A stretch of 41,458 nucleotides of DNA from Actinomycetota bacterium (GTDB lineage Bacteria > Actinomycetota > Actinomycetes > Actinomycetales > Microbacteriaceae), in contig JAFDWK010000073.1 of NCBI GenBank assembly GCA_018268515.1, forward strand, positions 460 to 41,917, in the 5' to 3' direction. A model generated the notes under the pieces. That model saw only the letters and a program-made list of their open reading frames with translations, was not told the origin of the DNA and made no database searches. Shown one piece after another: positions 11,803 to 34,618 of the stretch; positions within the stretch are counted from its first letter, which is position 1, and each line of letters begins with the position of its first letter. Made by a program: the position numbers and the translations under genes.

Positions 11803-12006
11803 TCATGACCATGTCAGCGTCGTCGGCGCGGTAGTCCTCGGTCGCGGGGACCACGGGCAGAAGCCGTCGTGGTGCTTCGCGGTGAGTACCACCGATCGCG
11901 CGCCGACGGCGCGGGCGGCGGCCGCCCAGTGCCGCGCGTCCAGGCGGGCAGGGTCGAACCCGGCCGCGGGAAGGGTGCCGTCGCTCCATTCCACGCCGAA
12001 CGCCCT
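11803..12006 (-). pseudogene. Remnant of a GH29 alpha-L-fucosidase (GH29-B-like N-terminal fragment)
   Basis: The minus strand encodes about 67 residues that read like the N-terminal part of a GH29 fucosidase: EWSDGTLPAAGFDPARLDAR, then HWAAAARAVGARSVVLTAKH and HDGFCPW. The LTAKHHDGFC.W motif is diagnostic of the family, and the EW.DG...F.P..LDA spacing is that of GH29-B (alpha-1,3/4-fucosidases). It has no start region, appears frameshifted after the CPW and stops at 11803. It lies 36 bp downstream of GH20 in the same orientation, so it was probably the next gene of that operon. The remaining ~300-400 residues are gone. Confidence 0.75.
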
Positions 12007-12041
12007 TCCGGCGCGCTCGGCCTGAGTGCGGCCAGGCCGAG

Positions 12042-13616
12042 TCAGCCTGCGACGGCACCGATCGCGGCGTCGAGCGCCGCGAAGTCCTCCAGCGACAGAG
12101 CGGATCCGGCGTTCCACGCCCGCTCCGCCATCGCACGCAGGGGCCCGCGGATCCCCTCGGCGACCTCGGCCGGGGTCTGCGCCTCCGGCCGGTCCGACCA
12201 CACCGCGAACGAGACGCCGAGCAGCAGCGAGGTGTAGGGGCGCACCAGCTCCTGCCGCACCGTGCTCTGCCCCTCCGGCCCCCAGAGCGCCGGGAAGAGC
12301 CCGGGATGCCAATCCGCCTCCCAGATCCCCGCCGCCGTGGGGTAGCGGTAGCCCGCGTTCTCGCCGAGCACGTAGTAGAACATCGCGTCGTTGACGTTGA
12401 CCAGCCGGTGCCCCGCGGCGATGGCATCGGCGACCGGACGCATGCCCTTGTTCCAGTTCGTCCACCAGGTCAGCACGACCTCGGGGTCCAGCCGCTCGGC
12501 GGTGCTGCGCAGCAGGCCGTCGTTCCATGCCCGCGCCTCGAACCCGCGCTCCCGCAGGTGCGCCGCGATCCGGTTGACGAACGCCGTGAGCAGGTCGAAC
12601 CCGGTCCCGTCCGCGCCGTAGCGCTCCCGCGCGGCGGCGGCGAGCGCGGGGAACTCCCCGATCCGGTCGAAGTCGACGAACTCGTCGCCGCCGAGGTTCC
12701 AGCGCGTGCTGTGCGGGAAGACCGGGATCATGTCGTCGATCAGGGCGAGGGCGAAGCGGATCGGATCCTCGCGGGTGATGTCGAGAGCGTGGTCGGTGTC
12801 GAGCCCGGGCGTCTCCGGCAGCCGGAACTCCGGGTGCGCGGCGAGCACGTGTTGCAGGTGTCCCGGCATGTCCAGCGACGGGATCAGGTCGATGTGCAGG
12901 TCGTGCGCGGTCGCGACGATCTCCGCAGCCTCGGCCCGGGTGATCCGCTCATCCGAGACGATCTCGCCGAACGCCTCCGACTCGAGCCGGAACCCGGGGT
13001 TCTCGGAGAAGTGCCACTGGAAGACGTTGACGCCGATGTCGGCGGCGGCGTGCAGCTGCTGCCGGATCCACGCCGCCGGATAGTGTTTGCGCCCCGCATC
13101 GAGGTGCAGCCCGCGTTCGGCGACGGCCGGCGCGGACTGCACGCACCCCCGAGGGACGGCGCCCTGCGCGCGCAGGTTGTGCAGCAGCTGCCGGGTGGCC
13201 CGGAACACTCCTGCCGCGGATGCCGCGGTCACCACGACGTCGTCTGCCACGTCGATCGCGAACGACTCGTCCGGGAACGCGCGGGCGGCGAGCGCAGCAC
13301 CCTCCGCCCCCGGCGCCGGCGCCGATGCCGATGCCGATGCCGATGCCGATGCCGCCCCCACCCCCGACGTGCCCAGCCGCAGGCGGATCGCCGGATCCGA
13401 GGCATCGCCGGCGACCGCGATCCCGCGTTCGCGCAGCTCCGATGCGAATCGCTCGGCCTCGCGCGCCAGCTCCGGCTCCTCGGCGATCACCCGCACCTGC
13501 CCCGGCGCCCACCTCCCGCCCGCGGGCTCGAACGACGTGGGCTGCGGTAGGGCGAGCCAGGGGATTCGGCCCGCCCCCTCATCTGGTTCCCGGACCGAGC
13601 TGTCGAGGGTGTTCAC
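12042..13616 (-). CDS. GH20 beta-N-acetylhexosaminidase
   Basis: Exo-hydrolase removing terminal beta-GlcNAc or beta-GalNAc by substrate-assisted catalysis. The 524-residue protein has an N-terminal GH20b-like domain (about 22-160) and a TIM barrel with GLHLDAGRKHYP (substrate-binding Arg175) and the catalytic Asp311-Glu312 pair in WNLGGDEFVDF. There is no signal peptide, so it acts in the cytosol on imported oligosaccharides. The GTG at 13616 overlaps the permease stop (GTGA), making it the last intact gene of the importer-1 operon. Residues about 89-99 form an Ala-Ser dipeptide run encoded by a hexanucleotide repeat. Confidence 0.92.
   Translation of the reverse strand: MNTLDSSVREPDEGAGRIPWLALPQPTSFEPAGGRWAPGQVRVIAEEPELAREAERFASELRERGIAVAGDASDPAIRLRLGTSGVGAASASASASASAPAPGAEGAALAARAFPDESFAIDVADDVVVTAASAAGVFRATRQLLHNLRAQGAVPRGCVQSAPAVAERGLHLDAGRKHYPAAWIRQQLHAAADIGVNVFQWHFSENPGFRLESEAFGEIVSDERITRAEAAEIVATAHDLHIDLIPSLDMPGHLQHVLAAHPEFRLPETPGLDTDHALDITREDPIRFALALIDDMIPVFPHSTRWNLGGDEFVDFDRIGEFPALAAAARERYGADGTGFDLLTAFVNRIAAHLRERGFEARAWNDGLLRSTAERLDPEVVLTWWTNWNKGMRPVADAIAAGHRLVNVNDAMFYYVLGENAGYRYPTAAGIWEADWHPGLFPALWGPEGQSTVRQELVRPYTSLLLGVSFAVWSDRPEAQTPAEVAEGIRGPLRAMAERAWNAGSALSLEDFAALDAAIGAVAG
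13319..13354. repeat. In-frame hexanucleotide repeat (GCCGAT) in GH20
   Basis: Five to six copies of GCCGAT encode an alternating Ala/Ser linker (read on the minus strand). Because the unit is six bases, copy-number change would alter linker length without breaking the frame. Confidence 0.85.
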
Positions 13617-14572
13617 CCCTTGACGCTCCCCTCTTCCACGCCCTTGAAGAACTGCTTCTGCAGGACCGCGAAGAGGATGATGATCGGCACCAGAGCGATC
13701 ATCGTGCCGGCCGCGATCACGCGCGGGTTGGCTCCGAACGTCGAGTTCAGATAGTCCATTCCGACCGTCAGCGTGTACTTCGCCGGATCCGACAGCACGA
13801 CCAGCGGCCACAGGAACTCGTCCCAGGCTCCGATGAACGCGAACAGCGCGACGACCGAGACCATGCCGCGAATGTTCGGCCACACGATGTGCCGCAACCG
13901 CTGCAGGGTGTTCGCTCCGTCGATGGTCGCGGCGTCCAGTGTGTCCGCGGGGATCATGCGGCAGGCCGCAGCCATGAGCAGCACGTTGATCGCCGCGATC
14001 GCACCGGGAAGGAAGACGCCCCACAGCGTGTTCGCCAAGCCCAGCGACTTCACGGTGAGGTACTGACTGGTCAACGTGACCTCGCCGGGAAGCAGCAGCG
14101 TGGAGAAGAAGATCGCCATGACGATGCCCTTCCCGCGGAACTTCAGGCATCCGAGCGCGTATCCGCCCAGCGTGGCGAAGATGACATTCGTGATGACCGT
14201 GCCTACGCCCACGAGAAGCGAGTTGCGGGCGTAGTCGAGAACCGGGATGGTACGGAACACCTCGGCGTAGTTGTCCCAGTTCGGCGCGGTCGGGATGAGC
14301 GACGGCGGGAAGGAGTAGATGTCCTCGGTGTTCCCCTTGAACGACGTGGAGAGCTGCCACACGAAGGGGAACACCATGACGACGAAGATCACGATGAGCA
14401 ATGCGTACTTGCCGACCAGCCCCCCGAGGGAAGGCTTCAGGATATCGGCCGACCCCTTGCCGCGATACGGCTTCTCCTTGTGCCGGGGCTCACGTCCCGG
14501 GCGTCGCCGTTCCACGGTCGCCTCGGTCTGCTCGACCAGCGCGGACGTCTCGCGCGAACCCATCAGGCTCAT
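13613..14572 (-). CDS. ABC sugar importer 1, permease (MalG/UgpE type)
   Basis: A 319-residue inner-membrane permease. After a charged 45-residue cytosolic N-terminus there are six predicted membrane segments. The cytoplasmic coupling loop (EAA motif) reads AATIDGANTLQRLRHIVWPN, where a shared ATPase would dock. The C-terminal FFKGVEEGSVKG is typical of carbohydrate-type MalG proteins. It overlaps the partner permease by four bases and the GH20 gene by four. No ATPase gene is present in the window; actinobacterial importers of this class usually share a distant MsiK-type ATPase. Confidence 0.93.
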   Translation of the reverse strand: MSLMGSRETSALVEQTEATVERRRPGREPRHKEKPYRGKGSADILKPSLGGLVGKYALLIVIFVVMVFPFVWQLSTSFKGNTEDIYSFPPSLIPTAPNWDNYAEVFRTIPVLDYARNSLLVGVGTVITNVIFATLGGYALGCLKFRGKGIVMAIFFSTLLLPGEVTLTSQYLTVKSLGLANTLWGVFLPGAIAAINVLLMAAACRMIPADTLDAATIDGANTLQRLRHIVWPNIRGMVSVVALFAFIGAWDEFLWPLVVLSDPAKYTLTVGMDYLNSTFGANPRVIAAGTMIALVPIIILFAVLQKQFFKGVEEGSVKG

Positions 14573-15516
14573 GCCGACACCTCCTCGGCGCGCTTGGCCG
14601 CACGCGCGGCGCGGCGGATGCGACGGTTGCCGACGATCTCACGCAGCACGTCGCCGTTGTTGGCGATGCCGACCACGAGCAGAGGCACCAGGGTGAGCAG
14701 GAACAGCACGATCGAGATCGCGGAGGCATATCCGATCTGACCGTTGAGGCCCTTGCCCATCGACTGGATGAGCATCACCATGCTCATCGACCGTCCGCCC
14801 GGCCCGCCGGACCCGTGCGACAGCACATACAGTTCGGTGAACACCCGCACGGCGGCGACGCAGATCAGCACCGAGACGAGCATCATGGGTCCACGGACCC
14901 CGGGGACGGTGACCGACCAGAACCGGCGCCAGGCGCCGGCGCCGTCCATCGCGGCCGCCTCATGGAGTTCGCGACCGACGTTTCCGAGGGCGGCCAGATA
15001 CACGACCATGTAGTAGCCGAGGCCCTTCCACACGGTCAACCCGATCGCGCAGAACATGAGAAGCCAGCGATCGGAGAGGAACTCGATCGGCCGGTCGGCC
15101 AGCCCGAAGAACTTCAGAGCCGAGTTGATCGTTCCCGTGCTGGAGAAGAGGAACTCCCAGACGATCGCCACGACCACCGCCGAGGCGATCACCGGGAAGT
15201 AGAACGTGGTGCGGAAGAAGCCGATGGCCGGAACCTTCCGGTGCACGAGCAGAGCCAGCAGCAACGGGATGAAGGTCAGCAGCGGGACGCACACGACGAC
15301 GTAGACGAGTGAGGTCGTCAGGGCGTAGCCGAAGCGCTCATCGCTGCCGAGCTTGACGAAGTTGTCCAATCCGACGAACTGGACGGGGCGGAGAGGGCGA
15401 GCATCGGTGAAGGCCAGCACCACCGTGTTCAGGAAGGGCCATAGTGCGAACACCAGGACCCAGATGACTCCGGGCAGTACGAGCAGGTACGGCGTGTACC
15501 AGCGCTGTCTTCTCAT
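14569..15516 (-). CDS. ABC sugar importer 1, permease (MalF/UgpA type)
   Basis: A 315-residue permease starting MRRQRWYTPYLLVLPGVIWV, characteristic of the MalF/UgpA family, with six predicted membrane segments. The EAA loop is visible as ELHEAAAMDGAGAWRRFWSV. It lies 28 bp downstream of the binding-protein stop and overlaps the following permease start by four bases (ATGA). With the MalG-type partner it would form the pore through which the captured oligosaccharide enters the cell. Like the rest of importer 1 it is poor in GGATCC compared with most of the window. Confidence 0.93.
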   Translation of the reverse strand: MRRQRWYTPYLLVLPGVIWVLVFALWPFLNTVVLAFTDARPLRPVQFVGLDNFVKLGSDERFGYALTTSLVYVVVCVPLLTFIPLLLALLVHRKVPAIGFFRTTFYFPVIASAVVVAIVWEFLFSSTGTINSALKFFGLADRPIEFLSDRWLLMFCAIGLTVWKGLGYYMVVYLAALGNVGRELHEAAAMDGAGAWRRFWSVTVPGVRGPMMLVSVLICVAAVRVFTELYVLSHGSGGPGGRSMSMVMLIQSMGKGLNGQIGYASAISIVLFLLTLVPLLVVGIANNGDVLREIVGNRRIRRAARAAKRAEEVSA

Positions 15517-15544
15517 TCGCTCACCCTCTCCACATCACATCGAA

Positions 15545-16834
15545 TTACTTGGAGGCGTTCTCGTTGGCGTAGTCCTGGCCCTTCTTCAGGGCCTCCTTCG
15601 CCGTGATGTCGCCACGCACCGCGAGAGCGATCTGCTGCTTCGCGTAGGTGTTCATCGCCTCGGTGAACCCAGGGGCGCCGGGGATGCGTGCCGCGTCCAT
15701 CTGAGCGGAGGCGAACTTGGTCGCCTGGGCCTGCTCCGGATTCTGCGCGGTCTCCGCGAACTTCGACGGATCGGCGTTGGCGGCCTTGGTGCCGGGGAAG
15801 AAGCCGGCAGCCAGCTTCACGAACTCGATCTGGTTCGAAGTGTCGGTGACGAACTCGGCGAAGGCCAGCGCGGTCGCGGACTGCTTGGACTTCGCCGAGA
15901 CGCCGATGCCCTGCAGGAACAGCGGCGCATCGCCGAAGCCACCGCTCACCTTGACGGAGGGCAGCAGGGTCGGGGCGTTCACCGCGAGGTTCTTGTCGAT
16001 GTAGTTCGGGCCGGCAGTTGTCCAGGCCACGGTGCCCTTGTTGAAGTTGTTGACGTTGTTGTCCGCCGTGCCCGCACCCTGAAGCGCCTCAGGGCTCACG
16101 CCACCAGCCTTGTAGAGCTTGGCGTAGCGGTCGATGATCGCCTCCGCCTCGGGGGTGTCGAAGACGAACTTGCCGCCCTTGTAGAACGGATAGGTGCCGC
16201 CCATGTCCGAAACCATCCACTGCAGCGCCTTGGTGTCGGGGATGTCGGACATGGTCTGCACGCCCTGCGCAGCCAGCTTGTCGGCATCGTCGAGCGTCGC
16301 GGCGAAGTCCTTCGGCGGCGCGGTGATGCCGGCCTTGCCGAGCAGCTCCGTGTTCCAGTAGTTGAGGTTGGTGCCGAGATACCACGGGAACGCGTAGGTA
16401 CCCTCGAGGCCGTCATAGGTGTACCCGGCGACACCACCCTCGACATAGTCGCCGAGCACCTTGGAGTCCTTCTTCAGGTCGACCAGCTGACCGACCTTGG
16501 CGAGCTCAGCGGCGAACTCCGGCGGCAGGTTGACCACATCGGGCAGTTCGCCGGATTCCGCCTGCTGCAGGATCTTGTCCTCATAGCCGTCGGCGGGCTG
16601 GTCGATCCAGTTGACCTTCGCGCCCTTGTGCTCCTTCTCGAACGCCGCGATGACGTCTTTGAAGTAGGGCGTGAACTTGTCGTTCTTGAGCGACCAGGTC
16701 TGGAACGTGATCGTTCCGTTGATCTCGCCGCCAGCGGATCCACCCCCGGAGGCCGCTCCTCCCCCGGTGCACGAGGTGAGGGCGAGCGCTGCCACCGCGG
16801 CGATGCCGACGGCGATTGTCGATCGGATCTTCAT
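15545..16834 (-). CDS. ABC sugar importer 1, solute-binding lipoprotein
   Basis: A 429-residue extracytoplasmic binding protein (carbohydrate family 1 type). The signal peptide ends in lipobox ALTSC with acylated Cys22, followed by a Gly/Ser-rich tether (CTGGGAASGGG). The mature part has the usual two-lobed pattern (FQTWSLKNDKFTPYFKDVI near the start). The ATG at 16834 has AAGGAG upstream. It is the first gene of the minus-strand unit binding protein-permease-permease-GH20. A LacI-type operator lies 60 bp upstream, between this gene and the divergent sulfatase gene. The ligand is predicted from context to be a sulfated or complex-glycan-derived oligosaccharide. Confidence 0.93.
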   Translation of the reverse strand: MKIRSTIAVGIAAVAALALTSCTGGGAASGGGSAGGEINGTITFQTWSLKNDKFTPYFKDVIAAFEKEHKGAKVNWIDQPADGYEDKILQQAESGELPDVVNLPPEFAAELAKVGQLVDLKKDSKVLGDYVEGGVAGYTYDGLEGTYAFPWYLGTNLNYWNTELLGKAGITAPPKDFAATLDDADKLAAQGVQTMSDIPDTKALQWMVSDMGGTYPFYKGGKFVFDTPEAEAIIDRYAKLYKAGGVSPEALQGAGTADNNVNNFNKGTVAWTTAGPNYIDKNLAVNAPTLLPSVKVSGGFGDAPLFLQGIGVSAKSKQSATALAFAEFVTDTSNQIEFVKLAAGFFPGTKAANADPSKFAETAQNPEQAQATKFASAQMDAARIPGAPGFTEAMNTYAKQQIALAVRGDITAKEALKKGQDYANENASK

Positions 16835-16893: not shown

Positions 16894-16909
16894 ACTAAAA
16901 CGATATAGT
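16894..16909. promoter_or_regulatory. LacI-family operator O1 between importer 1 and sulfatase 1
   Basis: ACTAAAACGATATAGT is a partial palindrome (ACTAnAnCGnTnTAGT) with the central CG typical of LacI-family sites. It is identical at 15 of 16 positions to the site at 31469-31484 next to the lacI gene. A plus-strand TATAGT -10-like hexamer (16904-16909) overlaps its right end, so bound repressor would block the sulfatase promoter. Confidence 0.75.
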
Positions 16910-17006: not shown

Positions 17007-18428
17007 ATGAACAGCCCCCGTCGCCCGAACATCGTGTTCGTGCTGACCGATGATCACGCCTCGAACGCGATCGGCTGCTACGGATCCGTCGTGAACATGA
17101 CGCCCGGCATCGACGCGATCGCCGCGGCCGGGATCCGCTTCGACCGCGCCCTCGTCGAGAACGCGCTGTGCACCCCCAGCCGCGCGGCCTTCCTCACCGG
17201 CACCTACAGCCACACCAGCGCCGTGACCACGCTCTCCACGCACCTGACGAACGACCACGAGACCTTCATCACCGCACTCAAGGCCGCGGGCTACCGCACC
17301 GCGATGTTCGGAAAGTGGCATCTCGGCCACGGCCCCGACCACGACCCGGTCGGCTTCGACCACTGGGAGGTGCTGCCGGATCAGGGCGAGTACTTCGACC
17401 CGGAGTTCTACACCCCGGACGGCCCGGTGCGCCGCGAAGGCTACGTCACCGACATCATCACCGAGCGCGCGCTGGCATGGATGCGTGCGCAGGGCGACGA
17501 GCCGTACTGCGTGCTGGTGTGGCACAAGGCCCCGCATCGCCCCTGGCTGCCCCACCCGCGGCACGCGGAGCTGTACACGGATCCGATCCCGCTGCCGCCC
17601 ACCTTCGACTACGACGGCCGCGGCACGCCCGCCCATCACGCCACCATGCGCATCGCCGACTACCTCACCGGCATCGACCTCAAGGAGGATCCGCCCGCCG
17701 AGCTCGGTTACACCGCACGCGCGGTGTGGAAGTACCAGCGCTACATGCAGGACTACCTGCGCTGCGTGGCCGCGGTCGACGAGGGCGTGCAGTCGCTCAC
17801 CGACTTCCTGCACGCGACGGGCCAGTTCGACGACACGGTCACGATCTACGCGTCCGACCAGGGCTTCTACCTCGGCGAGCACGGCTGGTTCGACAAGCGC
17901 TTCATGTACGAGGAGTCGCTGCGGATGCCGCTCGTGCTCAGCTATCCGGCGCAGGTCGCCGCCGGCGGCAGCACGGAGGCACTCGTGTCGAACGTCGACA
18001 TCGCGCAGACGCTGCTCGACTTCGCCGGGGCGCCCGCACCGGAAGGCATGCAGGGCCACAGCCTCGTGGATCTCGTGACCGCACCGGATCCGGATCCCGT
18101 GCGCGACGCGCACTACTACCGCTTCTACGAGCATGACGACCACATGCACCACGTGTGGGCGCACTACGGCGTGCGCACCGACCGCTACAAGCTGATCTAC
18201 TACTACGCCGACGGAATGGGACTGCCCAACACGGGCGACACGTCCTATCCTCCGGAGTGGGAGCTCTTCGACCTCGAGAAGGATCCGTTCGAGCTCACCA
18301 GCGTGCATCTCGATCCCGCGTACGCCGGCATCCGGCGTGGGCTGACCCTGAAGCTGTGGGATCTGCAGCACGACCTCGGCGACACCCCTCACCCGCGCCA
18401 GCCCGTCCCGGAAGGACGAACCAGATGA
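17007..18428 (+). CDS. Type I sulfatase (formylglycine-dependent), N-acetylglucosamine-6-sulfatase-like
   Basis: A 473-residue alkaline-phosphatase-fold sulfatase. Calcium ligands Asp15-Asp16 ([10 protein letters not shown]), the catalytic signature [11 protein letters not shown] (Cys55, to be converted to formylglycine), [10 protein letters not shown] and the later [16 protein letters not shown] are all present. The overall pattern, ending [15 protein letters not shown], resembles the GlcNAc-6-sulfatase-like branch, but substrate is not settled by sequence. There is no signal peptide, so it acts in the cytosol. The ATG at 17007 has an excellent AAGGAGG site, and its stop overlaps the GH5 start (ATGA). 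The maturase (formylglycine-generating enzyme) is not in the window. Confidence 0.9.
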
Positions 18429-19798
18429 CCATCGGCACCGACGCCGCCCCGGCCCCCGCTTCGAACGGAGCCGCCGCGAACGGAGCCGCCCCGTTGCGGT
18501 TCGGCGCGAACTACACCCCGTCGAAGGAGTGGATGCACTCCTGGCTCGACCTGGATCTCGATGTCGTGCGGCGAGACTTCGCCGGTCTCGCCGCCCTCGG
18601 CCTGGACCACGTGCGGATCTTCCCGCTCTGGCCCGTGCTGCAGCCCAACCGCACGCTCATCCGCGAGAAGGCGATCGCCGACGTGCGCGCCGTGATCGAC
18701 GTCGCCGCCGAGTTCGGCATGGACGCGTCGGTCGACGTGATCCAGGGGCACCTGTCGAGCTTCGACTTCATCCCGTCGTGGCTGTTCACCTGGCACGACA
18801 AGAACATGTTCACGCACCCGCAAGCGCTGAGCGGGCAGATCGCGCTCGTCGAGCGGCTCGGCGAGGCCCTGCGCGACGCCCCCAACTTCCTCGGCTTCAC
18901 ACTCGGCAACGAGGTGAACCAGTTCGCAGCGAGCGTGCACCCGCACCCGTGGCCGGTCTCGCCCGACGAGGCCGCGGGCTGGCTCACCACGCTGCTGGAC
19001 GCGGCCGAGCGCTCCGCCCCGGGCCTGCCGCACGTGCACAGCGAGTACGACGCGGCCTGGTACATGGACGGCCACGGCTTCGTGCCGACGCACGCCAGCC
19101 GCATCGGCGCGATGACGACCGTGCACTCCTGGATCTTCAACGGCACCGCCCAGCGCTACGGCGGGCGGAGCGCGGCGAGCGACCGGCACGCCGAGTACAT
19201 GATCGAGCTGTCCCGCGCCTTCGCGACGGATCCGGCCCGTCCGATCTGGCTGCAGGAGGTCGGCGCCCCGTCGAACTGCCTGACGCCCGAGCAGACTCCC
19301 GGCTTCCTCGAGGCGACCGTGCGCGCCGCGGTGCGGACCGAGAACCTCTGGGGCGTCACCTGGTGGTGCTCTCACGACGTGGGCCGCGAGCTCGCCGATT
19401 ACCCGGAGCTGGAGTACTCGCTGGGTCTGATCGATCAGACGGGTGAGGCCAAGCCCATCGGCCGCCGTTTCGCGGAGATCATCCCGTCCCTGCGTGAACG
19501 GCGCCCGGCGCCCGCGCGCACGACGGCGATCGTGATCGACGTCGACGCGCACGAGGTCCCGGTCAGCCGCGCGGCGATGAGCCCCGGTGGCGCGATCTTC
19601 CAGGCCTGGGTCGACGCGTGCGAGGCCGGGCTGGATCCGACCTTCGTCACCTCCGTCACGGCAGCGGATCCGGCCGCCCTCACCGCCCGGGGGATCACGG
19701 ATCTGATCCGTCCCGACCTGAGCACCGGATCGGGGATCTACTCGTCGAACAACACGGTCGTCGACGGGGCGGAGGATGCGGCAAAGGTCTCGGCATGA
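18425..19798 (+). CDS. GH5 subfamily 18-like beta-mannosidase (N-glycan core Man-beta-1,4-GlcNAc)
   Basis: A 457-residue cytosolic glycosidase. The barrel begins [20 protein letters not shown] (residues 25-44) and continues [15 protein letters not shown] and [15 protein letters not shown]. The acid/base is Glu163 (TLGNEVNQ) and the nucleophile Glu278 (IWLQEVGAP). This pattern closely resembles the bifidobacterial GH5_18 enzymes acting on the Man-beta-1,4-GlcNAc core disaccharide of N-glycans; that link is from memory of the family. About 95 residues follow the barrel. It overlaps the flanking sulfatase genes by four bases on each side, so desulfation and core cleavage are expressed together. 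Confidence 0.82.
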
Positions 19799-25848: not shown

Positions 25849-25849
25849 G

Positions 25850-25897
25850 GATCCTCCTGGGAGGATCGGGGGCCGGACTTTGTTCCGGCCCCCGATC
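25850..25897 (-). promoter_or_regulatory. Intercistronic double hairpin controlling permease translation
   Basis: 25864-25897 is a perfect 14-bp stem (arms GATCGGGGGCCGGA and its complement) with a six-base loop, right after the binding-protein stop. 25850-25867 forms a second stem that buries the permease AGGAGG. The two stems share the bases GATC (25864-25867), so they compete at their junction. Confidence 0.7.
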
Positions 25898-25903
25898 CGT
25901 GTC

Positions 25904-27172
25904 CTACTTCTGGCCGAACAGAGTCTTGAAGTCAGCACCGGCCTGCTTGACGGCCCCCGGCACGTCGGTCTGCCCGGTGATGACGCCGCCGGTCGTGGTG
26001 ATCAGGGTGTCCCACATGCCGTTGGGCAGGTACGCGCGGTCGAAGTACGGCACCATCCGCACCTTGCCCGGGGTGAAGAAGGCGTCGAAGCTGGGCGTCA
26101 GCGGTCCGAGATCGACCTTCACGTCCTTGAGCCCGGCTGGGTTCCCGCCCGCCGACGCCAGCGTCTGGACATTCTTGGACTGCGCCATGAAGTTCAGGAA
26201 GTCCAGCGCGGTCTTCTTGTTCTTGCCGTCCTTCCATGCTCCGAATGCGAAGCCCTCGCCGCCGATGAGGTACTCCGGGTCGCCATTGATCGCCGGCACC
26301 GGGATGAAGCCGAGCTGAACGTCCGGTACCAGCTCGCGCGCCGTGACCGCGATGCCGTTCTGCACCATCACGAACGCCGTGGTGCCCTGTGCGAGCGCGG
26401 CCGGGACATCGTCGCTGCTCGCCGCGGCGAAGTCCGCGTTGAAGTAGCCCTTCTTCGTCCAGTCCTCGAGTTTCCCGTACAGCGCGGAGAACCCGCTGTC
26501 CACGAAGTCGCCCTTGGCCAGCTTGGCGAGTTGATCCTTCGTGAAGGACCCGGATCCCAGCCAGTCGGCGAGATCGCCTGCGAACCAGCTGGCCTTGGAG
26601 GAGCTCGTGATCGGCACGACGCCCGCAGCCTTGATCTTCGCCAGGGCCCCCTCGAAGGCGCTCATGGTGCCCAGCGACTTCGGGTCGATCCCCAGCTTGT
26701 CCAGCACTGCCTTGTTGTACACGATGCCCGCCACGTCCGTGGTGACCGGAAGGGCGAAGAATTCGCCCTTGCTGTTCTTCATGGTGGCGTCCAGCACGGG
26801 GTTGACCCGCTTCGCCCATGGCTGCGTCTGCAGGGGTTCCAGGAACTCGCTGTAACGCAGCAACGACCAGCCGTGCGTCGCCCAGATGTCCGGAAGGTCC
26901 CCCGCCGCCATGCGGACCTTCATGTCCCCCTCGTAGTCCTTGCCCTGCGGAACGACCTTGATCGTGACACCGGGGTGCTCCTTCTCATACGCCTTCGAGA
27001 TCGAGTCGAGAGCCTTGTACTGCGGGGTGGTGGCCTCCATGGCCGACTGCAGTTCGAGGGAGGCCTTGCCGTCGCCGCCCGAAGCCGCCCCACCCGCGCA
27101 TCCGCTGAGCATGAGCGCCGCCAAGGCGACACCGGCGGTCATGACCACCAGTCTGTTGCGATGTGACTTCAT
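25904..27172 (-). CDS. ABC sugar importer 2, solute-binding lipoprotein
   Basis: A 422-residue extracytoplasmic binding protein with a signal peptide ending in lipobox MLSGC (acylated Cys25) and a Gly/Ala/Ser tether. The mature domain (LELQSAMEATTPQYKALDSI onward, DIWATHGWSLLRYSEFLEPL, FDRAYLPNGMW) is of the carbohydrate family 1 type. It is the first gene of the minus-strand unit binding protein-permease-permease-GH2 and diverges from the oxidoreductase gene. The ligand is unknown; coupling to a beta-galactosidase makes a galactose-terminated oligosaccharide likely. Confidence 0.93.
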   Translation of the reverse strand: MKSHRNRLVVMTAGVALAALMLSGCAGGAASGGDGKASLELQSAMEATTPQYKALDSISKAYEKEHPGVTIKVVPQGKDYEGDMKVRMAAGDLPDIWATHGWSLLRYSEFLEPLQTQPWAKRVNPVLDATMKNSKGEFFALPVTTDVAGIVYNKAVLDKLGIDPKSLGTMSAFEGALAKIKAAGVVPITSSSKASWFAGDLADWLGSGSFTKDQLAKLAKGDFVDSGFSALYGKLEDWTKKGYFNADFAAASSDDVPAALAQGTTAFVMVQNGIAVTARELVPDVQLGFIPVPAINGDPEYLIGGEGFAFGAWKDGKNKKTALDFLNFMAQSKNVQTLASAGGNPAGLKDVKVDLGPLTPSFDAFFTPGKVRMVPYFDRAYLPNGMWDTLITTTGGVITGQTDVPGAVKQAGADFKTLFGQK

Positions 27173-28627: not shown

Positions 28628-29617
28628 ATGAGCGGTGCCGATCAGCGACGTGGCGTCACGCGCGCCGATGTGGCGCGACTCGCGGGCGTCAGCACGGCGG
28701 TCGTCAGCTACACGCTGAACGACGGGCCGAAGCCAGTGGCGGCGGCGACGAAGGCGAGGGTGCTCGAGGCCGTGCGGTTGCTGGGCTACCGGCCCAATGC
28801 CGCCGCCCGCGCACTGAGCACGGGGCAGTCCGACCTGCTCGCACTCGTCGTGCCCACCGTGGAGCAGTCCTATTTCGCGCACCTTGCGGCGGCCGTGGAG
28901 AGAGCAGCCGCCGCGCACGGGCTCTCACTGATCGTCGCGAACGCGATGCCGGATCGCGTCGCGCCCGTCGTGCGCGGCCTGGTCGGCCGGCAGGTGCGCG
29001 GCCTCATCATCGCCGCCGAAGCCACCGCGGATGCGACCAAGGAATTCCTCGCTGCAGGGACTCCCACCGTGGTGATCAACCAGGCCTCACCGATCGGGTC
29101 GCTGCTCACCCTGGGACCGGACTACCGCGCCGGCACGATGAACGGCGTGCACCACCTCATCGAAGCGCACGGTCATCGCCGAATCGCCTACCTGGGCGGG
29201 GACGTCGACGGGGACGAGCGCGTGCGCGGGTGGACGGACGCGCTGTCCGCCGCAGGACTCGCACTCGGCCCCGCCCTGGCCGGCGGGTTCACCCCCGCCG
29301 ACGGCCGTACGGCGATGCGTGCACTGCTGCGTGAGCACCCGGAGGTCACCGCTGCGTTCTGCGCCTCCGATCAGCTGGCGATCGGCGCCCTTGCGGCACT
29401 CGCCGAGACCGGCGGGAGAGCTCCCGATGATCTCGCGTTGGTGTCATTCGACGGCTCGCCCGAGGCGGAGTTCGCCGTGCCCGCTCTGACCACGGTCAAC
29501 GTTCCCATCGACGCGATGGCACATGACGCCGTCACACGAGTGCTCGACGACATCTCCGCCGGGCATGTGCGCTACGAGGCAGAGCTCATCGTGCGGCGCT
29601 CCTGCGGCTGCCAATAG
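28628..29617 (+). CDS. LacI-family transcriptional regulator 1
   Basis: A 329-residue repressor-type protein: N-terminal helix-turn-helix (TRADVARLAGVSTAVVSYTL, residues 11-30, with hinge region around RPNAAARALSTG) and a periplasmic-binding-protein-like effector domain ending LIVRRSCGCQ. The ATG at 28628 has GAGGGG upstream. It lies with the oxidoreductase gene and divergent from importer 2, so it probably regulates these; its operator may involve the mirrored AGTCTACGC/GCGTAGACT sites. Its recognition helix differs from that of LacI 2, so it should read a different operator. There is no GGATCC in the gene. Confidence 0.92.
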   Translation: MSGADQRRGVTRADVARLAGVSTAVVSYTLNDGPKPVAAATKARVLEAVRLLGYRPNAAARALSTGQSDLLALVVPTVEQSYFAHLAAAVERAAAAHGLSLIVANAMPDRVAPVVRGLVGRQVRGLIIAAEATADATKEFLAAGTPTVVINQASPIGSLLTLGPDYRAGTMNGVHHLIEAHGHRRIAYLGGDVDGDERVRGWTDALSAAGLALGPALAGGFTPADGRTAMRALLREHPEVTAAFCASDQLAIGALAALAETGGRAPDDLALVSFDGSPEAEFAVPALTTVNVPIDAMAHDAVTRVLDDISAGHVRYEAELIVRRSCGCQ

Positions 29618-29665
29618 AGCCCCTACGGCGCGGGACTTCCGTCGCGCGCACGGCCTTGATCGTTC

Positions 29666-29700
29666 GGCGCGCTGGCGGTGAGCGCCGAGCGGGTCAGCTC
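29666..29700. repeat. Right 35-bp direct repeat bounding the 21.1-29.7 kb block
   Basis: Matches 21081-21115 at 33 of 35 positions. On the plus strand it retains a Trp-Arg-stop reading like the sulfatase 2 end (ARWR then TGA); on the minus strand it contains the stop and last two codons of the cytidylyltransferase gene. Confidence 0.8.
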
Positions 29701-30434: not shown

Positions 30435-31457
30435 TCAGCGCCGGGGTGCGGCCGTGCTCTCCCGGATCGTGAGCGCCGGAGGGGTTCCCGGCCGGGACGG
30501 CAGCGGATCCGCGGATCCGATCCGCTCCAGGAGGAAGGCCGCCGCCTGCTCGCCGAGGGCGAAGGTGTCGCGAGTGAGGCAGGTGATCGACGGATGCACG
30601 AGCCCCGTGACCACCGAGTCGTCGAACGATGCCACCGACAGCGCCTGCGGCACTCCGACGCCCATCTCCTGCGCGACCCTGAGCCCCGCGATCGCCATCA
30701 CGTCGTTGTCGTAGACGACGGCGGTCGGCCTCGCCGCGCGGCTGAGCAGCGTCCGGGTGGCGGCCGTGGCGGCCGCCGGGGAGAAGTCCGTGACGATCGT
30801 CTCCCCCGCGACGTGGCGCCCCGCGAGGGACGCCAGCACGTCCGCGCGGATCCGGGTGTGCTGGAACTCCGCGGGCCCGGAGATGTATGCGATCTCCTGA
30901 TGGCCGAGGGCGGCGAGGTAATCGAACAGCGAGTGCGCGGCGGCCTGGTCGTCGAGCCAGATCGCGGGCGGATCCCCCGCGGTGTCGCTGCTGCCGATCA
31001 CGACCGCCGGCAGCGGCAGCGAGGGCAGCAGGGTCAGGCGCGGGTCGTCGTCGCGCGGATCAATCACGATCACGCCGTCGACCTGGTTCGCGCTGCACCA
31101 GCGCCGGTAGGTCGCCATCTCCTCCTCGATCGAGGAGACCACGACCAGCTGCAGCGCCACGCCGTGCTGCGCGAGGGCCGACTGCACGCCGGCGATGAGG
31201 TCGGTGAAGAACGCCTCCGTGCCGAGGGTGCGGGCGGGGCGGTTCACCGCGAAGCCGACGACACCGGCGCGGGATCCGACCAGGGCCCGGGCGGCCGAGC
31301 TGGGCTGCCACTGGTGCTCCTCGGCGATGTCGAGGATGCGCTGCCGGGTCTGCTCGCTCACGCCGGGGCGGCCGTTCAGCGCGAACGAGACCGCGCCGGG
31401 GGAGACTCCCGCGAGCCGGGCGATATCGGCGATGGTGATGCGCTTCGCCTGTGACAT
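30435..31457 (-). CDS. LacI-family transcriptional regulator 2 (proposed master regulator of the glycan locus)
   Basis: A 340-residue regulator with helix-turn-helix ITIADIARLAGVSPGAVSFA (residues 7-26), hinge SSAARALVG, and a sugar-sensing C-terminal domain (VASFDDSVVTGLVHPSITCL near the end). The ATG at 31457 follows TACGGT by exactly six bases, so it is probably leaderless. The palindrome 31469-31484 overlaps this promoter and also precedes the divergent GH38 gene; a 15/16 match lies at 16894-16909. This predicts autoregulation plus control of GH38, importer 1, GH20 and the sulfatase-GH5-sulfatase operon, with an oligosaccharide or mannoside as inducer. Confidence 0.93.
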   Translation of the reverse strand: MSQAKRITIADIARLAGVSPGAVSFALNGRPGVSEQTRQRILDIAEEHQWQPSSAARALVGSRAGVVGFAVNRPARTLGTEAFFTDLIAGVQSALAQHGVALQLVVVSSIEEEMATYRRWCSANQVDGVIVIDPRDDDPRLTLLPSLPLPAVVIGSSDTAGDPPAIWLDDQAAAHSLFDYLAALGHQEIAYISGPAEFQHTRIRADVLASLAGRHVAGETIVTDFSPAAATAATRTLLSRAARPTAVVYDNDVMAIAGLRVAQEMGVGVPQALSVASFDDSVVTGLVHPSITCLTRDTFALGEQAAAFLLERIGSADPLPSRPGTPPALTIRESTAAPRR

Positions 31458-31463
31458 AGACTC

Positions 31464-31469
31464 ACCGTA
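31464..31469 (-). promoter_or_regulatory. Leaderless -10 element of LacI 2 (TACGGT)
   Basis: TACGGT on the minus strand, six bases (gagtct), then ATG. The adjacent operator overlaps its first base. Confidence 0.6.
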
Positions 31470-31484
31470 CTAGATCGTTTTAGT
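31469..31484. promoter_or_regulatory. LacI-family operator O2 between lacI 2 and GH38
   Basis: ACTAGATCGTTTTAGT is a partial palindrome with central CG and symmetric ACTA/TAGT ends. Its reverse complement differs from the 16894-16909 site at one base. It sits 78 bp before the GH38 start and directly upstream of the lacI -10. Confidence 0.78.
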
Positions 31485-31546: not shown

Positions 31547-34500
31547 GTGCACGAAGAGACCTCGCTCACCGTCGGCCGCGTCACCCGCGTGCTCGGCGAG
31601 CGCGTGCGGCCCGCCGTCCATTCGGCCCGCATCCCGCTGGAGATCGGCGTGCACGCCCTGCCGGGCGAGCCGATCGCGCCCGCCGACGGCATGGCACTCG
31701 AGTACACGCCGTTCGCGGCCGGCCAGCAGTGGGGCCCCGCGTGGGGCACCACGTGGTTCCGCGTCCGCGGCACCGTGCCGGCCGAGTGGGCGGGCAAGCG
31801 CGTCGAGGCGCTCGTCGACCTCGGCTTCGACATCAACATGACCGGGTTCCAGTGCGAGGCCCTCGCCTACCGCACCGGGGCCGACGGCGAGCCGATCCCG
31901 GTGAAGAGCCTCAACCCGCGCAACCAGTGGCTGCCGATCACGGAGCGGGCCGAGGGCGAGGAGGCGATCGAGCTGTTCCTCGAGGGCGCCTCCAATCCGG
32001 TGCTGCTGGACTACCACCCCTTCCTGCCGACGCAGGAGGGCGACATCCTCACCTCCTCGCCGGATCCGCTCTACCGCGTGCGGCACATGGACCTCGCCGT
32101 GTTCGAGCCCGAGGTGTTCGAGCTCTCCCTCGATCTCGAGGTGCTGCTCGAGCTGCAGGCGGAGCTGCCCGAGACCAGCCCCCGCCGGATGCGCATCCTG
32201 CAGGCGCTCGACAACGCCCTGGACGAGCTCGACCTGCAGCGCATCGTCGAGACCGCGGGCGAGGCCCGCGCGCAGCTGGCCGACGTGCTCGCCGCACCCG
32301 CCGACGCGAGCGCGCACCGCATCGCCGCGATCGGGCACGCGCACATCGACTCCGCCTGGCTGTGGCCGCTGCGTGAGACCGTGCGCAAGGTCGCCCGCAC
32401 CACGTCGTCGATGACGACCCTGCTCGAGGAGCAGCCGCAGTTCCGCTACGGCATGTCCAGCGCGCAGCAGTACGCCTGGATGAAGGAGCACCGTCCCGAG
32501 GTCTACGCCCGGATCAAGGCCGCCGTCGCCGAGGGCCGCTTCCTGCCGCTGGGCGGCATGTGGGTCGAGTCCGACACCGTGATGCCGACCGGCGAGTCGC
32601 TGGTGCGGCAGTTCTCGCACGGGCAGCGCTTCTTCGAGCGCGAGTTCGGGATCCGCTCGAAGGGCGTCTGGCTGCCGGACAGCTTCGGCTACTCCCCCGC
32701 CCTGCCGCAGCTCATGCGCCGGGCCGGCTTCGAGTGGTTCTTCACGCAGAAGATCTCGTGGAACCAGCGCAACGTGTTCCCGCACCACAGCTTCGACTGG
32801 GAGGGCATCGACGGATCGCGGATCTTCACGCACTTCCCCCCCATGGACACCTACAACTCGCAGCTCTCGGGCATGGAGGTCGCCAAGGCGTCCCGCCAGT
32901 TCAAGGAGAACCGCGTCGCGACGCGCTCGATCGCCCCGGTCGGCTGGGGCGACGGCGGCGGCGGCACGACCCGCGAGATGACCGGCAAGGCCTCCCGCCT
33001 CGCGGATCTCGAAGGCAGCGCGAAGGTCGAGTGGATCCACCCCGACGAGTTCTTCGACGCCGCCAAGGCGGAGCTTCCGGATCCCGCCGTGTGGGTCGGC
33101 GAGCTGTACCTCGAGCTGCACCGCGGCACGCTCACCAGCCAGCACGCCACGAAGGCGCTGCACCGCTGGGCCGAGCAGGCGCTCATCGAGGCCGAGCTGT
33201 GGGCATCGACCGCCGCCGTGCGCCTCGGTGCGGCCTACCCGCACGACGAGCTCGACCGGCTGTGGGAGACGGTGCTGCTGCACGAGTTCCACGACATCCT
33301 GCCGGGCACCTCGATCGCGTGGGTGCACCGCGAGGCGGTCTCGGTGCTCTCCGGCGTACTCGACGAGGCCCGCACGCTGTCGGATGCCGCACGCGCGGCG
33401 CTCGCCGGCTCCGGGGATCTCGAGCTCGTCTTCACCCCGACCTCGGTGGGCGTCGGATCCGGTGCCCAGGCGCTCGGCGCCGCCGCACGCACGGACCGGT
33501 CCCTGAGCGAGGAGCGCAGCGCCCTTCGTCTCGCTTCGCTCGCTCAGGAACCGGCGAAGGGCGTCTCGCTCACCGAGACCGGATCCGGGTTCCGCCTCGA
33601 GAACGACCTCGTCGCGGTCGTGATCTCGCCCGAGGGCCTCATCGTCTCCGCCGTGGACAAGGCCACGGGCCGCGAGACGATCCCGGCCGGCAAGCCCGCG
33701 AACCTGTTCCAGCTGCACCAGGACTTCCCGAACATGTGGGACGCGTGGGACATCGACAAGTACTACCGCAACCGCGTGGACGACCTGACCGCGGTGTCGT
33801 CGATCTCCGCCTCGGTCGAGGACGGCGTCGCGACGATCGTGGTGGAGCGGCCGTTCTCGGTGTCGTCCCTGCGGCAGACGATCACGCTGGCCCCCGGATC
33901 CCGCACCGTGTCGCTGCGCAACGAGATCGACTGGCACGAGACCGAGAAGCTGCTCAAGCTCGCCTTCCCGCTCGACGTCTTCGCCCGGCAGACGGCCGCC
34001 GAGACGCAGTTCGGCTTCCAGCGCCGGGTCACGCACGTGAACACGAGCTGGGAGGCCGCGAAGTTCGAGACCTCGATGCACCGTTTCGTGCTGGTGCAGG
34101 AGGACGGCGGCTTCGGCGCCGCGCTCGTGAACGACTCGATCTACGGCTTCGACACCACGCGCGACGTGGACGGCGACGACGTCAGCACCACCGTGCGCCT
34201 GTCGCTGCTGCGCGCCCCGCGCTTCCCCGACCCCGACACCGACCACGGCACGCACGAGATCCAGGTGGGCCTGGTGATCGGCGCCGACGCCGCGATCGCG
34301 ACCGCCGAGGGCATCACGCTGAACGCGCCGTCGACCGTCGTCCGGGGCGCGAACGAGGTCGAGCCGCTGGTGGCCGTGTCGGGCGAGGGCATCGTCGTGT
34401 CGAGTGTGAAGCTCGCCGACGACCGCTCCGGCGACGTGATCGTGCGCGTCTACGAGGCGCTCGGTCGGCGCACGAGCGGATCCCTGTCGGTCGGCTTCGC

Positions 34501-34618
34501 GCACACCGGGATCCGCGAGGTCTCGCTCATCGAGGATGAGCTGGAGTCGCCGCGCACCGGCGAGGCGCTGGAGCTGCGTCCGTTCGAGGTGCGCACGCTG
34601 CGCATCCCCCGGGCCTGA
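31547..34618 (+). CDS. GH38 alpha-mannosidase
   Basis: A 1023-residue class II alpha-mannosidase, a zinc-dependent retaining enzyme that trims alpha-mannose from N-glycans. Zinc ligands lie in HAHIDSAWLWP (His266, Asp268); the nucleophile Asp378 in WLPDSFGYSP binds zinc as well; HEFHDILPGTS starts near residue 579. C-terminal beta-sandwich domains follow. There is no signal peptide. I chose the GTG at 31547, seven bases after AAAGGAG, over an upstream in-frame start. Residues about 651-669 are encoded by a palindromic intergenic-type element (33496-33554) that seems to have inserted in frame. Confidence 0.94.
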   Translation: MHEETSLTVGRVTRVLGERVRPAVHSARIPLEIGVHALPGEPIAPADGMALEYTPFAAGQQWGPAWGTTWFRVRGTVPAEWAGKRVEALVDLGFDINMTGFQCEALAYRTGADGEPIPVKSLNPRNQWLPITERAEGEEAIELFLEGASNPVLLDYHPFLPTQEGDILTSSPDPLYRVRHMDLAVFEPEVFELSLDLEVLLELQAELPETSPRRMRILQALDNALDELDLQRIVETAGEARAQLADVLAAPADASAHRIAAIGHAHIDSAWLWPLRETVRKVARTTSSMTTLLEEQPQFRYGMSSAQQYAWMKEHRPEVYARIKAAVAEGRFLPLGGMWVESDTVMPTGESLVRQFSHGQRFFEREFGIRSKGVWLPDSFGYSPALPQLMRRAGFEWFFTQKISWNQRNVFPHHSFDWEGIDGSRIFTHFPPMDTYNSQLSGMEVAKASRQFKENRVATRSIAPVGWGDGGGGTTREMTGKASRLADLEGSAKVEWIHPDEFFDAAKAELPDPAVWVGELYLELHRGTLTSQHATKALHRWAEQALIEAELWASTAAVRLGAAYPHDELDRLWETVLLHEFHDILPGTSIAWVHREAVSVLSGVLDEARTLSDAARAALAGSGDLELVFTPTSVGVGSGAQALGAAARTDRSLSEERSALRLASLAQEPAKGVSLTETGSGFRLENDLVAVVISPEGLIVSAVDKATGRETIPAGKPANLFQLHQDFPNMWDAWDIDKYYRNRVDDLTAVSSISASVEDGVATIVVERPFSVSSLRQTITLAPGSRTVSLRNEIDWHETEKLLKLAFPLDVFARQTAAETQFGFQRRVTHVNTSWEAAKFETSMHRFVLVQEDGGFGAALVNDSIYGFDTTRDVDGDDVSTTVRLSLLRAPRFPDPDTDHGTHEIQVGLVIGADAAIATAEGITLNAPSTVVRGANEVEPLVAVSGEGIVVSSVKLADDRSGDVIVRVYEALGRRTSGSLSVGFAHTGIREVSLIEDELESPRTGEALELRPFEVRTLRIPRA
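33496..33554. repeat. REP-like palindromic element inside the GH38 coding sequence
   Basis: The 59 bases run from CCGGT-CCCTGAGCGA to TCGCTCAGG-AACCGG as an inverted repeat. The same GAGCGAGCGCAGCGAGACGAA family occurs between genes at 11676, 34627 and 41404. Here it is translated as a Ser/Leu/Glu/Arg-rich linker between the catalytic and C-terminal domains. Confidence 0.75.

What the first reader, a model, noticed from the sequence alone, without database searches (positions are those of the whole stretch)
11803..34618. A complete intracellular pathway for sulfated complex N-glycans (or similar glycoprotein glycans) in an actinobacterium
The locus combines two sulfatases, a LacZ-type beta-galactosidase, a GH20 hexosaminidase, a GH38 alpha-mannosidase, a GH5_18-type Man-beta-1,4-GlcNAc mannosidase, two sugar importers and two LacI regulators. 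Stripped in order, these activities dismantle a sulfated, galactosylated, GlcNAc-capped N-glycan down to the core GlcNAc. GH38 plus GH5_18 is a combination I know from bifidobacterial N-glycan use; adding cytosolic sulfatases fused by 4-bp overlaps to GH5_18 is, to my knowledge, not a described arrangement. An endoglycosidase to release the glycan is not in the window, so release is either encoded elsewhere or done by other organisms.
Basis: partly seen in the sequence, partly recalled or inferred. Interest (0 to 1): 0.82.

Follow-up and report, generated by a model that had tools for sequence, protein, structure and literature searches.

The report
Decayed sulfated N-glycan feeding locus
This soil-type bacterium carries a partly broken copy of a gene cluster that its relatives appear to use to release, import and dismantle sugar chains from glycoproteins, including chains that bear sulfate, an addition not found described for this kind of cluster in the papers searched.

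Summary
The named enzymes are there, but they are neither complete nor one pathway. The window lies in a Microbacterium genome. GH5_18, GH38, GH20, importer 1, LacI2 and an S1_11-like sulfatase belong to a conserved N-glycan locus. One LacI-type operator sits at both divergent promoters here (2 hits, 0.02 expected) and at the same promoters in relatives (136 hits, 80 of 100 loci; shuffled palindromes average 0.14). In relatives the operon continues past GH20 with a secreted GH18 endoglycosidase nearest Endo-CoM, a complex-type enzyme. Here it is deleted, the next gene, a fucosidase, is a relic, and the second sulfatase has an in-frame TGA. LacZ, importer 2, Gfo/Idh and LacI1 form an 8.6-kb block between 36-nt direct repeats, with no LacZ in the 99 other loci read. 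Across 100 loci, type-A importers (28: endoglycosidase 16, sulfatase 14, GH92 0) and type-B importers (50: GH92 44, endoglycosidase and sulfatase 0) exclude each other's enzymes around a shared GH5_18/LacI2/GH38 core. Sulfatase-GH5_18 coupling is conserved. Sulfate positions rest on homology. New variant of a known kind.

The parts
11797..12040 (-). Relic of an alpha-L-fucosidase (GH29): a stretch of the N-terminal part (11831-12000) joined to the last codons (11797-11858); no start codon kept
   Evidence: Pfam PF01120 on a 40-residue stretch; blastn map to L032 1449-1619 and 437-498
12042..13616 (-). GH20 beta-N-acetylhexosaminidase, GTG start overlapping the permease stop; the endoglycosidase that follows it in relatives is deleted here
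   Evidence: Pfam; start; nearest solved relatives are lacto-N-biosidases, but with Arg where 4h04 has Gln and 8hvb Tyr
13613..14572 (-). ABC importer 1, permease B
   Evidence: Pfam BPD_transp_1
14569..15516 (-). ABC importer 1, permease A
   Evidence: Pfam BPD_transp_1
15545..16834 (-). ABC importer 1, solute-binding lipoprotein (type-A importer)
   Evidence: Pfam SBP_bac_1; lipobox
16894..16909 (+). LacI-type operator ACTAAAACGATATAGT between importer 1 and Sulf1
   Evidence: 14 of 14 SBP1|Sulf1 junctions, this one included
17007..18428 (+). Sulfatase 1, S1_11-like (GlcNAc-6-O-sulfatase by homology), C-T-P-S-R
   Evidence: Pfam Sulfatase + SGSH_C; best solved relative 5g2v N-acetylglucosamine-6-sulfatase E 4e-113
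18425..19798 (+). GH5_18 Man-beta-1,4-GlcNAc beta-mannosidase, ATGA overlap with Sulf1
   Evidence: 9y4v 781 bits, ScGH5_18 7lr7 513 bits, BlGH5_18 7lqx 462 bits
19795..21096 (+). Sulfatase 2, S1_19-like, interrupted by in-frame TGA at 19855-19857 (codon 21); ATGA overlap with GH5_18
   Evidence: best solved relatives are carrageenan sulfatases of S1_19; open in the 8 relatives read, of 12 that have it
21080..21115 (+). Left copy of the 36-nt direct repeat bordering the inserted block
21109..24072 (-). LacZ-type GH2 beta-galactosidase (on the inserted block)
   Evidence: Pfam, NCBIfam LacZ-type models below their cut-offs; at most 53% identity to the others listed in the genus
24089..27172 (-). 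ABC importer 2: two permeases and an MsmE-like binding protein (on the inserted block)
   Evidence: Pfam; 4r6h MsmE 209 bits
27281..28555 (+). Gfo/Idh/MocA oxidoreductase (on the inserted block)
   Evidence: Pfam, NCBIfam below cut-offs
28628..29617 (+). LacI1 regulator (on the inserted block)
   Evidence: Pfam
29665..29700 (+). Right copy of the 36-nt direct repeat (34 of 36 identical)
30435..31457 (-). LacI2 regulator of the conserved locus
   Evidence: Pfam; found in most census loci
31469..31484 (-). LacI-type operator ACTAAAACGATCTAGT between LacI2 and GH38
   Evidence: 54 of 63 divergent LacI2|GH38 junctions
31547..34618 (+). GH38 alpha-mannosidase (open frame from 31484; likely start GTG 31547)
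   Evidence: Pfam, four GH38-type domains; solved relatives 7ufr etc.; start

Best explanation
It is one strain's eroded and remodelled copy of a conserved Microbacterium locus for complex-type N-glycans, some of them sulfated. In intact relatives a secreted GH18 endoglycosidase frees the glycan. A type-A ABC importer takes it in. In the cytosol an S1_11-like sulfatase removes 6-O-sulfate from GlcNAc and an S1_19-like sulfatase removes 4-O-sulfate from a galacto-configured cap (GalNAc or Gal). GH20 removes the exposed hexosamines, GH38 the alpha-mannoses, and GH5_18 splits the last Man-beta-1,4-GlcNAc. LacI2 holds the importer, sulfatase/GH5_18 and GH38 promoters (and separate endoglycosidase promoters in some relatives) through one operator. 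In this genome the endoglycosidase is deleted, the fucosidase is a relic and Sulf2 has a stop, so the strain would at most scavenge glycans freed by others and desulfate GlcNAc-6-sulfate. LacZ with importer 2 and LacI1 is an unrelated block inserted between Sulf2 and the next gene. Shown by computation: gene identities, deletions, stop, insertion, operator, conserved order. Inferred: every enzyme activity, substrate linkage, sulfate position, cell location and operator-repressor pairing.
For: GH5_18, GH38, S1_11-like Sulf1, S1_19-like Sulf2 by sequence and by the fold of an intact ortholog. Endoglycosidase directly after GH20 in L032 and L036, signal peptide by reading, nearest 6kpl, then CP40, 7puj, EndoS2, EndoS; PMC8374693 lists Endo-CoM (6KPL) among enzymes that cut complex but not high-mannose N-glycans (passages). 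Operator: 2 hits vs 0.02 expected in the window; 14 of 14, 54 of 63, 41 of 59 and 3 of 3 divergent junctions, 50 control palindromes mean 0.14. Sulf1 orthologs (>=81% identity) in 15 of 366 genus genomes, 14 of 15 directly beside GH5_18 on one contig, the 15th split by contig ends. ATGA overlap Sulf1/GH5 in 14 of 14 loci. Partition of enzymes by importer type over 100 loci. Insertion borders; deletion map. FGE present in the genome.
Against: No activity has been measured. GH20 is nearest solved lacto-N-biosidases, so type-1 chain cleavage is possible. A Sulf1 relative at 78% in Tessaracoccus caeni has no GH5_18 within 10 kb, and 31 further genus genomes hold only 46-60% homologs, none beside GH5_18, so the sulfatase is not bound to this pathway everywhere. 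G277 has a 92% GH5_18 but no Sulf1. 6 of the 15 sulfatase genomes lack the endoglycosidase (G000, G083, G097, G287, and the fragmented G074 and G278), and within type-A loci it is no commoner with sulfatases (8 of 14) than without (8 of 14). 20 of 100 loci show no operator within 3 mismatches. Co-occurrence counts are not corrected for relatedness.
Confidence: 0.75

Rival explanations
1. One reading: a complete, working pathway for sulfated and galactosylated N-glycans, with LacZ and both importers as parts of one system.
For: All families sit within 23 kb and LacZ would remove beta-1,4-galactose.
Against: Endoglycosidase deleted, fucosidase relic, stop in Sulf2. No LacZ relative in the 99 other census loci at E<=1e-20; the block lies between 36-nt direct repeats and has no LacI2 operator within 3 mismatches.
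Confidence: 0.07
2. The sulfatases serve keratan sulfate or mucin O-glycans and only happen to be next to GH5_18.
For: A solved relative of Sulf1 is named mucin-desulfating sulfatase; GH20 is near lacto-N-biosidases; Sulf1 relatives exist away from GH5_18.
Against: Sulf1, GH5_18 and Sulf2 overlap by 4 bp or lie within a few bases, and share one operator with the importer; sulfatases occur only with the type-A importer (14 of 28 against 0 of 50 and 0 of 22 without importer match); between the HhH-GPD and LuxS genes of the intact loci L032 and L036 every called gene was typed and none is a galactosidase.
Confidence: 0.12
3. Sulf2 is intact in the living strain and the TGA is a base-call or assembly error; then only the release and fucose steps are lost.
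For: dN/dS of Sulf2 against three relatives is 0.095-0.118, no sign of relaxed selection; the assembly is a 115-contig draft.
Against: The same locus carries two deletions that no single-base error explains; stray errors that make stops are rare in assemblies (general knowledge). No reads were available.
Confidence: 0.15
4. The in-frame TGA codes selenocysteine (the column is Cys in the 8 relatives read).
For: TGA on a Cys column.
Against: No tRNA-Sec over the Rfam cut-off in this genome or in the 22 other same-genus genomes searched, while 9 of the 15 genomes from elsewhere in the order reach it; the column is not the catalytic Cys.
Confidence: 0.01
5. The locus targets plant or fungal mannans.
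For: GH38 and GH5 families include mannan enzymes (general knowledge).
Against: Full-length match to N-glycan core GH5_18 enzymes and only a weak one to an endo-mannanase, 52 bits; a hexosaminidase in the operon; an endoglycosidase of the EndoS/Endo-CoM kind in relatives.
Confidence: 0.03

Closest known systems
Cutibacterium acnes GH38/GH5_18/GH20/GH18 locus (PMC6160142, passages read)
   Same: Cytoplasmic GH38, GH5_18 and GH20 with transporter genes and a regulator, and a GH18; GH20 and GH18 lost in some strains by a genomic deletion.
   Different: No sulfatase mentioned (term 'sulfat' has 0 occurrences in the main text); the GH18 there is compared with EndoT; no cassette exchange in the passages read.
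Bifidobacterium longum and Streptomyces GH5_18 enzymes and N-glycan pathways (structures 7lqx, 6mp2, 7lr7; the 2021 ACS Chem Biol paper on shared core genes is recalled and is not held)
   Same: GH5_18 plus alpha-mannosidase core for Man-beta-1,4-GlcNAc.
   Different: Sulfatases in such an operon are not known to me there; the paper itself could not be read.
GlcNAc-6-O-sulfatases: 5g2v and 7p24 (S1_11 label recalled), and F1-ORF13 acting on sulfated N-glycans (PMC8379841, passages; its subfamily not seen)
   Same: Sequence family of Sulf1 (first two); the third shows that a bacterial sulfatase can take 6-O-sulfate from GlcNAc of intact N-glycans.
   Different: F1-ORF13 is nearest Phocaeicola/Bacteroides proteins; Sulf1 has no signal peptide by reading and is coupled to GH5_18.
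S1_19 carrageenan sulfatases PsS1_19B, Ps i-CgsB (6psm, 6bia)
   Same: Closest sequence and fold for Sulf2, 31-34% identity.
   Different: Marine carrageenan substrates; a 4-O galacto-sulfate in an N-glycan is an inference.

Membership tests
GH5 subfamily 18 | Full-length match to characterised GH5_18 enzymes | tested here: met
   9y4v 781, 7lr7 513, 7lqx 462, 6gvb 360 bits; GNE and QEVG stretches present
Actinobacterial N-glycan utilisation locus | GH38 and GH5_18 without signal peptides, with importer and regulator | tested here: met
   signal peptides judged by reading only
Actinobacterial N-glycan utilisation locus | Endoglycosidase or amidase that releases the glycan | tested here: not met
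   None in the window; no relative of the EndoS-type enzyme, no PF00704 GH18 and no GH85 in the 96%-complete genome; present in 16 of 28 type-A loci. PNGase not searched
S1_11 GlcNAc-6-O-sulfatase (Sulf1) | Formylglycine motif and best match to GlcNAc-6-sulfatases | tested here: met
   CTPSR; 5g2v E 4e-113; subfamily label recalled, no SulfAtlas run
S1_11 GlcNAc-6-O-sulfatase (Sulf1) | Activity on GlcNAc-6-sulfate | not testable with these tools
   needs assay
S1_19 sulfatase (Sulf2) | Closest sequence and fold S1_19 | tested here: met
   208 bits to 6prm; Foldseek ranks 1-5 are PsS1_19B, rank 6 an S1_16 enzyme, with an intact ortholog's model, pTM 0.91
S1_19 sulfatase (Sulf2) | Intact open frame in this genome | tested here: not met
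   TGA at codon 21
Lacto-N-biosidase (GH20) | No Arg at the position where the known enzymes make room for galactose | tested here: not met
   Arg in LDAGRKHY against LCACQINI in 4h04 and VCACYINI in 8hvb; the role of the residue is recalled, so this is one weak test
Selenoprotein (Sulf2) | tRNA-Sec in the genome | tested here: not met
   draft genome, best match 41.6 bits against a cut-off of 47

The most novel reading that the evidence does not exclude
Microbacterium holds a modular N-glycan system in which whole cassettes (importer plus releasing enzyme plus trimming enzymes) are swapped around a fixed GH5_18-LacI2-GH38 core. One cassette adds a coupled pair of cytosolic sulfatases that together undress 6-O-sulfo-GlcNAc and 4-O-sulfo-GalNAc (sulfated LacdiNAc) N-glycans. 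This would be a dedicated bacterial route for hormone-type and invertebrate sulfated N-glycans; it would explain why the intact loci carry a hexosaminidase but no galactosidase.
Probability: 0.3. Interest if true: 0.72.

Novelty: new variant of a known kind. Interest (0 to 1): 0.52.

Why it matters
Sulfated N-glycans are reported on pituitary hormones, on immunoglobulins (abstracts in the listing) and on oyster proteins (a title in the reference list seen), and PMC8379841 calls enzymes that read them missing from the toolbox. A locus that names the sulfatases, the releasing enzyme, the importer and the likely regulator makes bacterial use of sulfated N-glycans directly testable, offers candidate tools for glycan analysis, and shows complex-type and presumed high-mannose specificities changing place at one chromosomal site.

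Tried and rejected
Selenocysteine for the Sulf2 TGA: rejected, no tRNA-Sec over cut-off. LacZ as part of the pathway: rejected. GH20 as lacto-N-biosidase: disfavoured by one residue, whose role is recalled. Importer 1 ligand from structure: nearest solved protein is 6wpm, which told me nothing about N-glycans. Tessaracoccus caeni neighbours of its Sulf1 relative gave no N-glycan genes among the 12 typed. An operator for LacI1: one 9-nt inverted repeat 27221/27298, not followed. Relaxed selection on Sulf2: not seen. Rfam scan of the window: nothing. Paper searches: GH5_18 + N-glycan + sulfatase, 0 papers; Microbacterium + N-glycan + sulfatase, 0; four further searches for sulfatases with N-glycans or for Microbacterium endoglycosidases gave no such locus in the listings, of which only PMC8379841 and PMC11659886 were opened, for passages. 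Only open-licence papers are held, so this is no proof of absence. The 2023 review PMC10154615 has 'sulfat' twice, both in one passage of its reference list.

Row handling: census = 100 loci of the 116 genus genomes with a GH5_18 match; 16 genomes were not fetched; L050 dropped as a second stretch of the genome of L231; 5 loci hold only a distant GH5_18 of 36-58% (L047, L048, L049, L230, L231) and are counted; 8 loci shorter than 13 kb (L037, L152, L154, L203, L208, L219, L227, L228) can miss genes. The GH38 tree used 81 rows and the importer-type test 68. One operator hit counted as inside a GH18 gene with a 40-base margin is not inside with a 60-base margin.
Full report
What is there. The window is contig C86, bases 460-41917, of a 3.71-Mb, 115-contig, 96%-complete genome. 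The closest named loci are Microbacterium: M. azadirachtae ARN176, Microbacterium sp. Au-Mic1, MAG 13-71-7, MAH-37 and others. Sulf1 is closest to N-acetylglucosamine-6-sulfatase 5g2v (E 4e-113) and 7p24. GH5 is subfamily 18, with 781 bits to 9y4v and 462 to BlGH5_18 7lqx. GH38 matches alpha-mannosidases 7ufr/7ufu. The two 4-bp overlaps are real.

Sulf2 has an in-frame TGA at codon 21 (19855-19857); the rest of the frame is open. In the 8 relatives read, of 12 census loci that have Sulf2, the column is Cys and the frame is open there. Selenocysteine is unlikely: no tRNA-Sec over cut-off in this genome or in 22 other same-genus genomes, against 9 of 15 genomes from elsewhere in the order. dN/dS of Sulf2 is 0.095-0.118 against three relatives, like Sulf1 (0.122-0.130) and GH5 (0.140-0.149), so the break is recent or an error. 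A restart at 19873 would lack the N-terminal Asp pair that I recall as metal ligands; both Asp are invariant in the 19-sequence alignment. At 11797-12040 lies a fucosidase relic: part of its N-terminal half is joined to its last codons.

The missing endoglycosidase. In L032 and L036 the operon continues past GH20 with a protein matching PF23916 (EndoS TIM barrel, E about 1e-86) and, in L032, then GH29. The endoglycosidase has an N-terminal signal peptide by reading. Its nearest solved relatives are 6kpl, CP40 8uen, 7puj, EndoS2 and EndoS; PMC8374693 gives 6KPL as Endo-CoM and puts it with EndoS, EndoF3 and BT1044 among enzymes that cut complex but not high-mannose N-glycans, while EndoS2 is broader (passages). 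In the window this gene is deleted: window 12058-12300 matches L032 3131-3373, and the next match is 11831-12000 to 1449-1619. The rest of the genome has no such enzyme, no PF00704 GH18 and no GH85, while the same protein query finds 19 of 366 genus genomes, so that search works. Two GH29 genes matching nearly the whole model exist on contig C26.

The inserted block. In L032-L036 and L039 Sulf2 is followed by the cytidylyltransferase-like gene and then LacI2. In the window 8.6 kb intervene: LacZ, importer 2, Gfo/Idh, LacI1. The block's ends carry the only direct repeat of 24 nt or more found in 20900-29900, 36 nt with 34 identical, at 21080-21115 and 29665-29700; 3 of 6 relatives examined show a single copy at this point (L032, L033, L035). 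LacZ has at most 53% identity to any other listed from 366 genus genomes (70 genomes pass E<=1e-200, the own included). I take the block as foreign to the pathway.

The regulon. The 16-mer ACTAAAACGATMTAGT occurs twice in the window within 3 mismatches, between importer 1 and Sulf1 (16894) and between LacI2 and GH38 (31469); 0.02 expected. Over 100 loci (1.91 Mb) the ideal palindrome with up to 3 mismatches has 136 hits in 80 loci, none inside matched genes; 50 shuffled palindromes average 0.14, at most 2. It sits in 14 of 14 SBP1|Sulf1, 54 of 63 LacI2|GH38, 41 of 59 SBP1|GH5 and 3 of 3 SBP1|endoglycosidase divergent junctions. That LacI2 binds it is inferred from position and conservation.

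The census. GH5_18 is in 116 of 366 genus genomes. Of these I read 100 loci. Type-A importer (SBP1 identity >=60%): 28 loci, endoglycosidase 16, Sulf1 14, Sulf2 13, GH29 6, GH20 26, GH92 0. Type-B (<50%): 50 loci, GH92 44, GH18 of another kind 37, endoglycosidase 0, sulfatases 0, GH20 7. No importer match: 22 loci, no sulfatase, endoglycosidase or GH92. So a complex-type and a presumed high-mannose cassette exclude each other. Within type A the endoglycosidase is as common with sulfatases (8 of 14) as without (8 of 14). On a GH38 tree the importer type changes at least 9 times by starred branches (13 by parsimony; 68 rows, FastTree) and the sulfatase label 5 times (81 rows, 12 with it), which fits exchange of cassettes at one site. 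High-mannose for type B rests on GH92 only.

Sulfatase coupling. Sulf1 orthologs at 81% identity or more occur in 15 of 366 genomes; the next hits are at 60% or less. In 14 of 15 the gene abuts GH5_18, and in the 15th (G074) both genes end near contig ends. The ATGA overlap Sulf1/GH5 is in 14 of 14 loci. GH5/Sulf2 overlap by 4 bp in 8 (window, L032-L036, L039, L041; TTGA in L034), lie within a few bases in L044, L154, L155 and L157, and could not be judged in L152 (contig end) and L229 (split GH5). The endoglycosidase is in 9 of these 15 genomes and in 10 of the other 351; relatedness is not controlled. A strong FGE match, the kind of enzyme that matures such sulfatases, is in the genome (G000:C72).

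Sulfate positions. Sulf1: GlcNAc-6-O by family. Sulf2: the model of the intact ortholog (pLDDT 86, pTM 0.91) has PsS1_19B, an S1_16 enzyme and Ps i-CgsB as nearest folds, with human 4-sulfatase 1fsu at rank 24; that most of these act on 4-O-sulfated galacto-sugars is partly recalled. Between the HhH-GPD and LuxS genes of L032 and L036 every called gene was typed and none is a galactosidase.

Verdict. Known: GH38/GH5_18/GH20/GH18 loci for N-glycans (PMC6160142, passages). Not found in the searches made: such a locus with coupled sulfatases.

Noticed in passing
window 13613-16834: Importer 1 is of another lineage than its neighbours: SBP1 is 76-77% identical to L032-L036 (dN/dS 0.35-0.36 against L032 and L036) but 86-89% to L044, L152, L154, L155, while Sulf1 shows the reverse in L044, L154 and L155. 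This suggests replacement of the importer by recombination.
   Followed up: partly
window 13321-13354: Hexamer microsatellite (GCCGAT x5.7) inside the GH20 gene, coding a Ser-Ala repeat.
   Followed up: no
window 9587-10009 (+): Gene matching rifampin ADP-ribosyltransferase Arr-ms (PF12120, E 3e-45), beside the haem genes; described only.
   Followed up: no
window 539-9160: Haem genes: HemD, porphobilinogen deaminase, chlorite-dismutase family (HemQ, label recalled), a flavin amine-oxidoreductase family gene, uroporphyrinogen decarboxylase, glutamyl-tRNA reductase.
   Followed up: no
window 34812-35285 (-): LuxS next to the GH38 gene, in the same place in several relatives.
   Followed up: no
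window 3220-3402, 4870-5013, 30266-30351, 35744-35842: Several tandem arrays with periods 8 to 49 outside the typed genes.
   Followed up: no
L229 (G287): GH5_18 is split into two overlapping frames in this genome, another eroded copy of the sulfatase-type locus; its genome also has no endoglycosidase match.
   Followed up: partly
window 27221-27229 and 27298-27306: 9-nt inverted repeat AGTCTACGC/GCGTAGACT between importer 2 and Gfo/Idh, a candidate LacI1 site.
   Followed up: no
L058 10001-11374: A 78% Sulf1 relative in Tessaracoccus caeni without GH5_18 within 10 kb, suggesting horizontal transfer of the sulfatase.
   Followed up: partly
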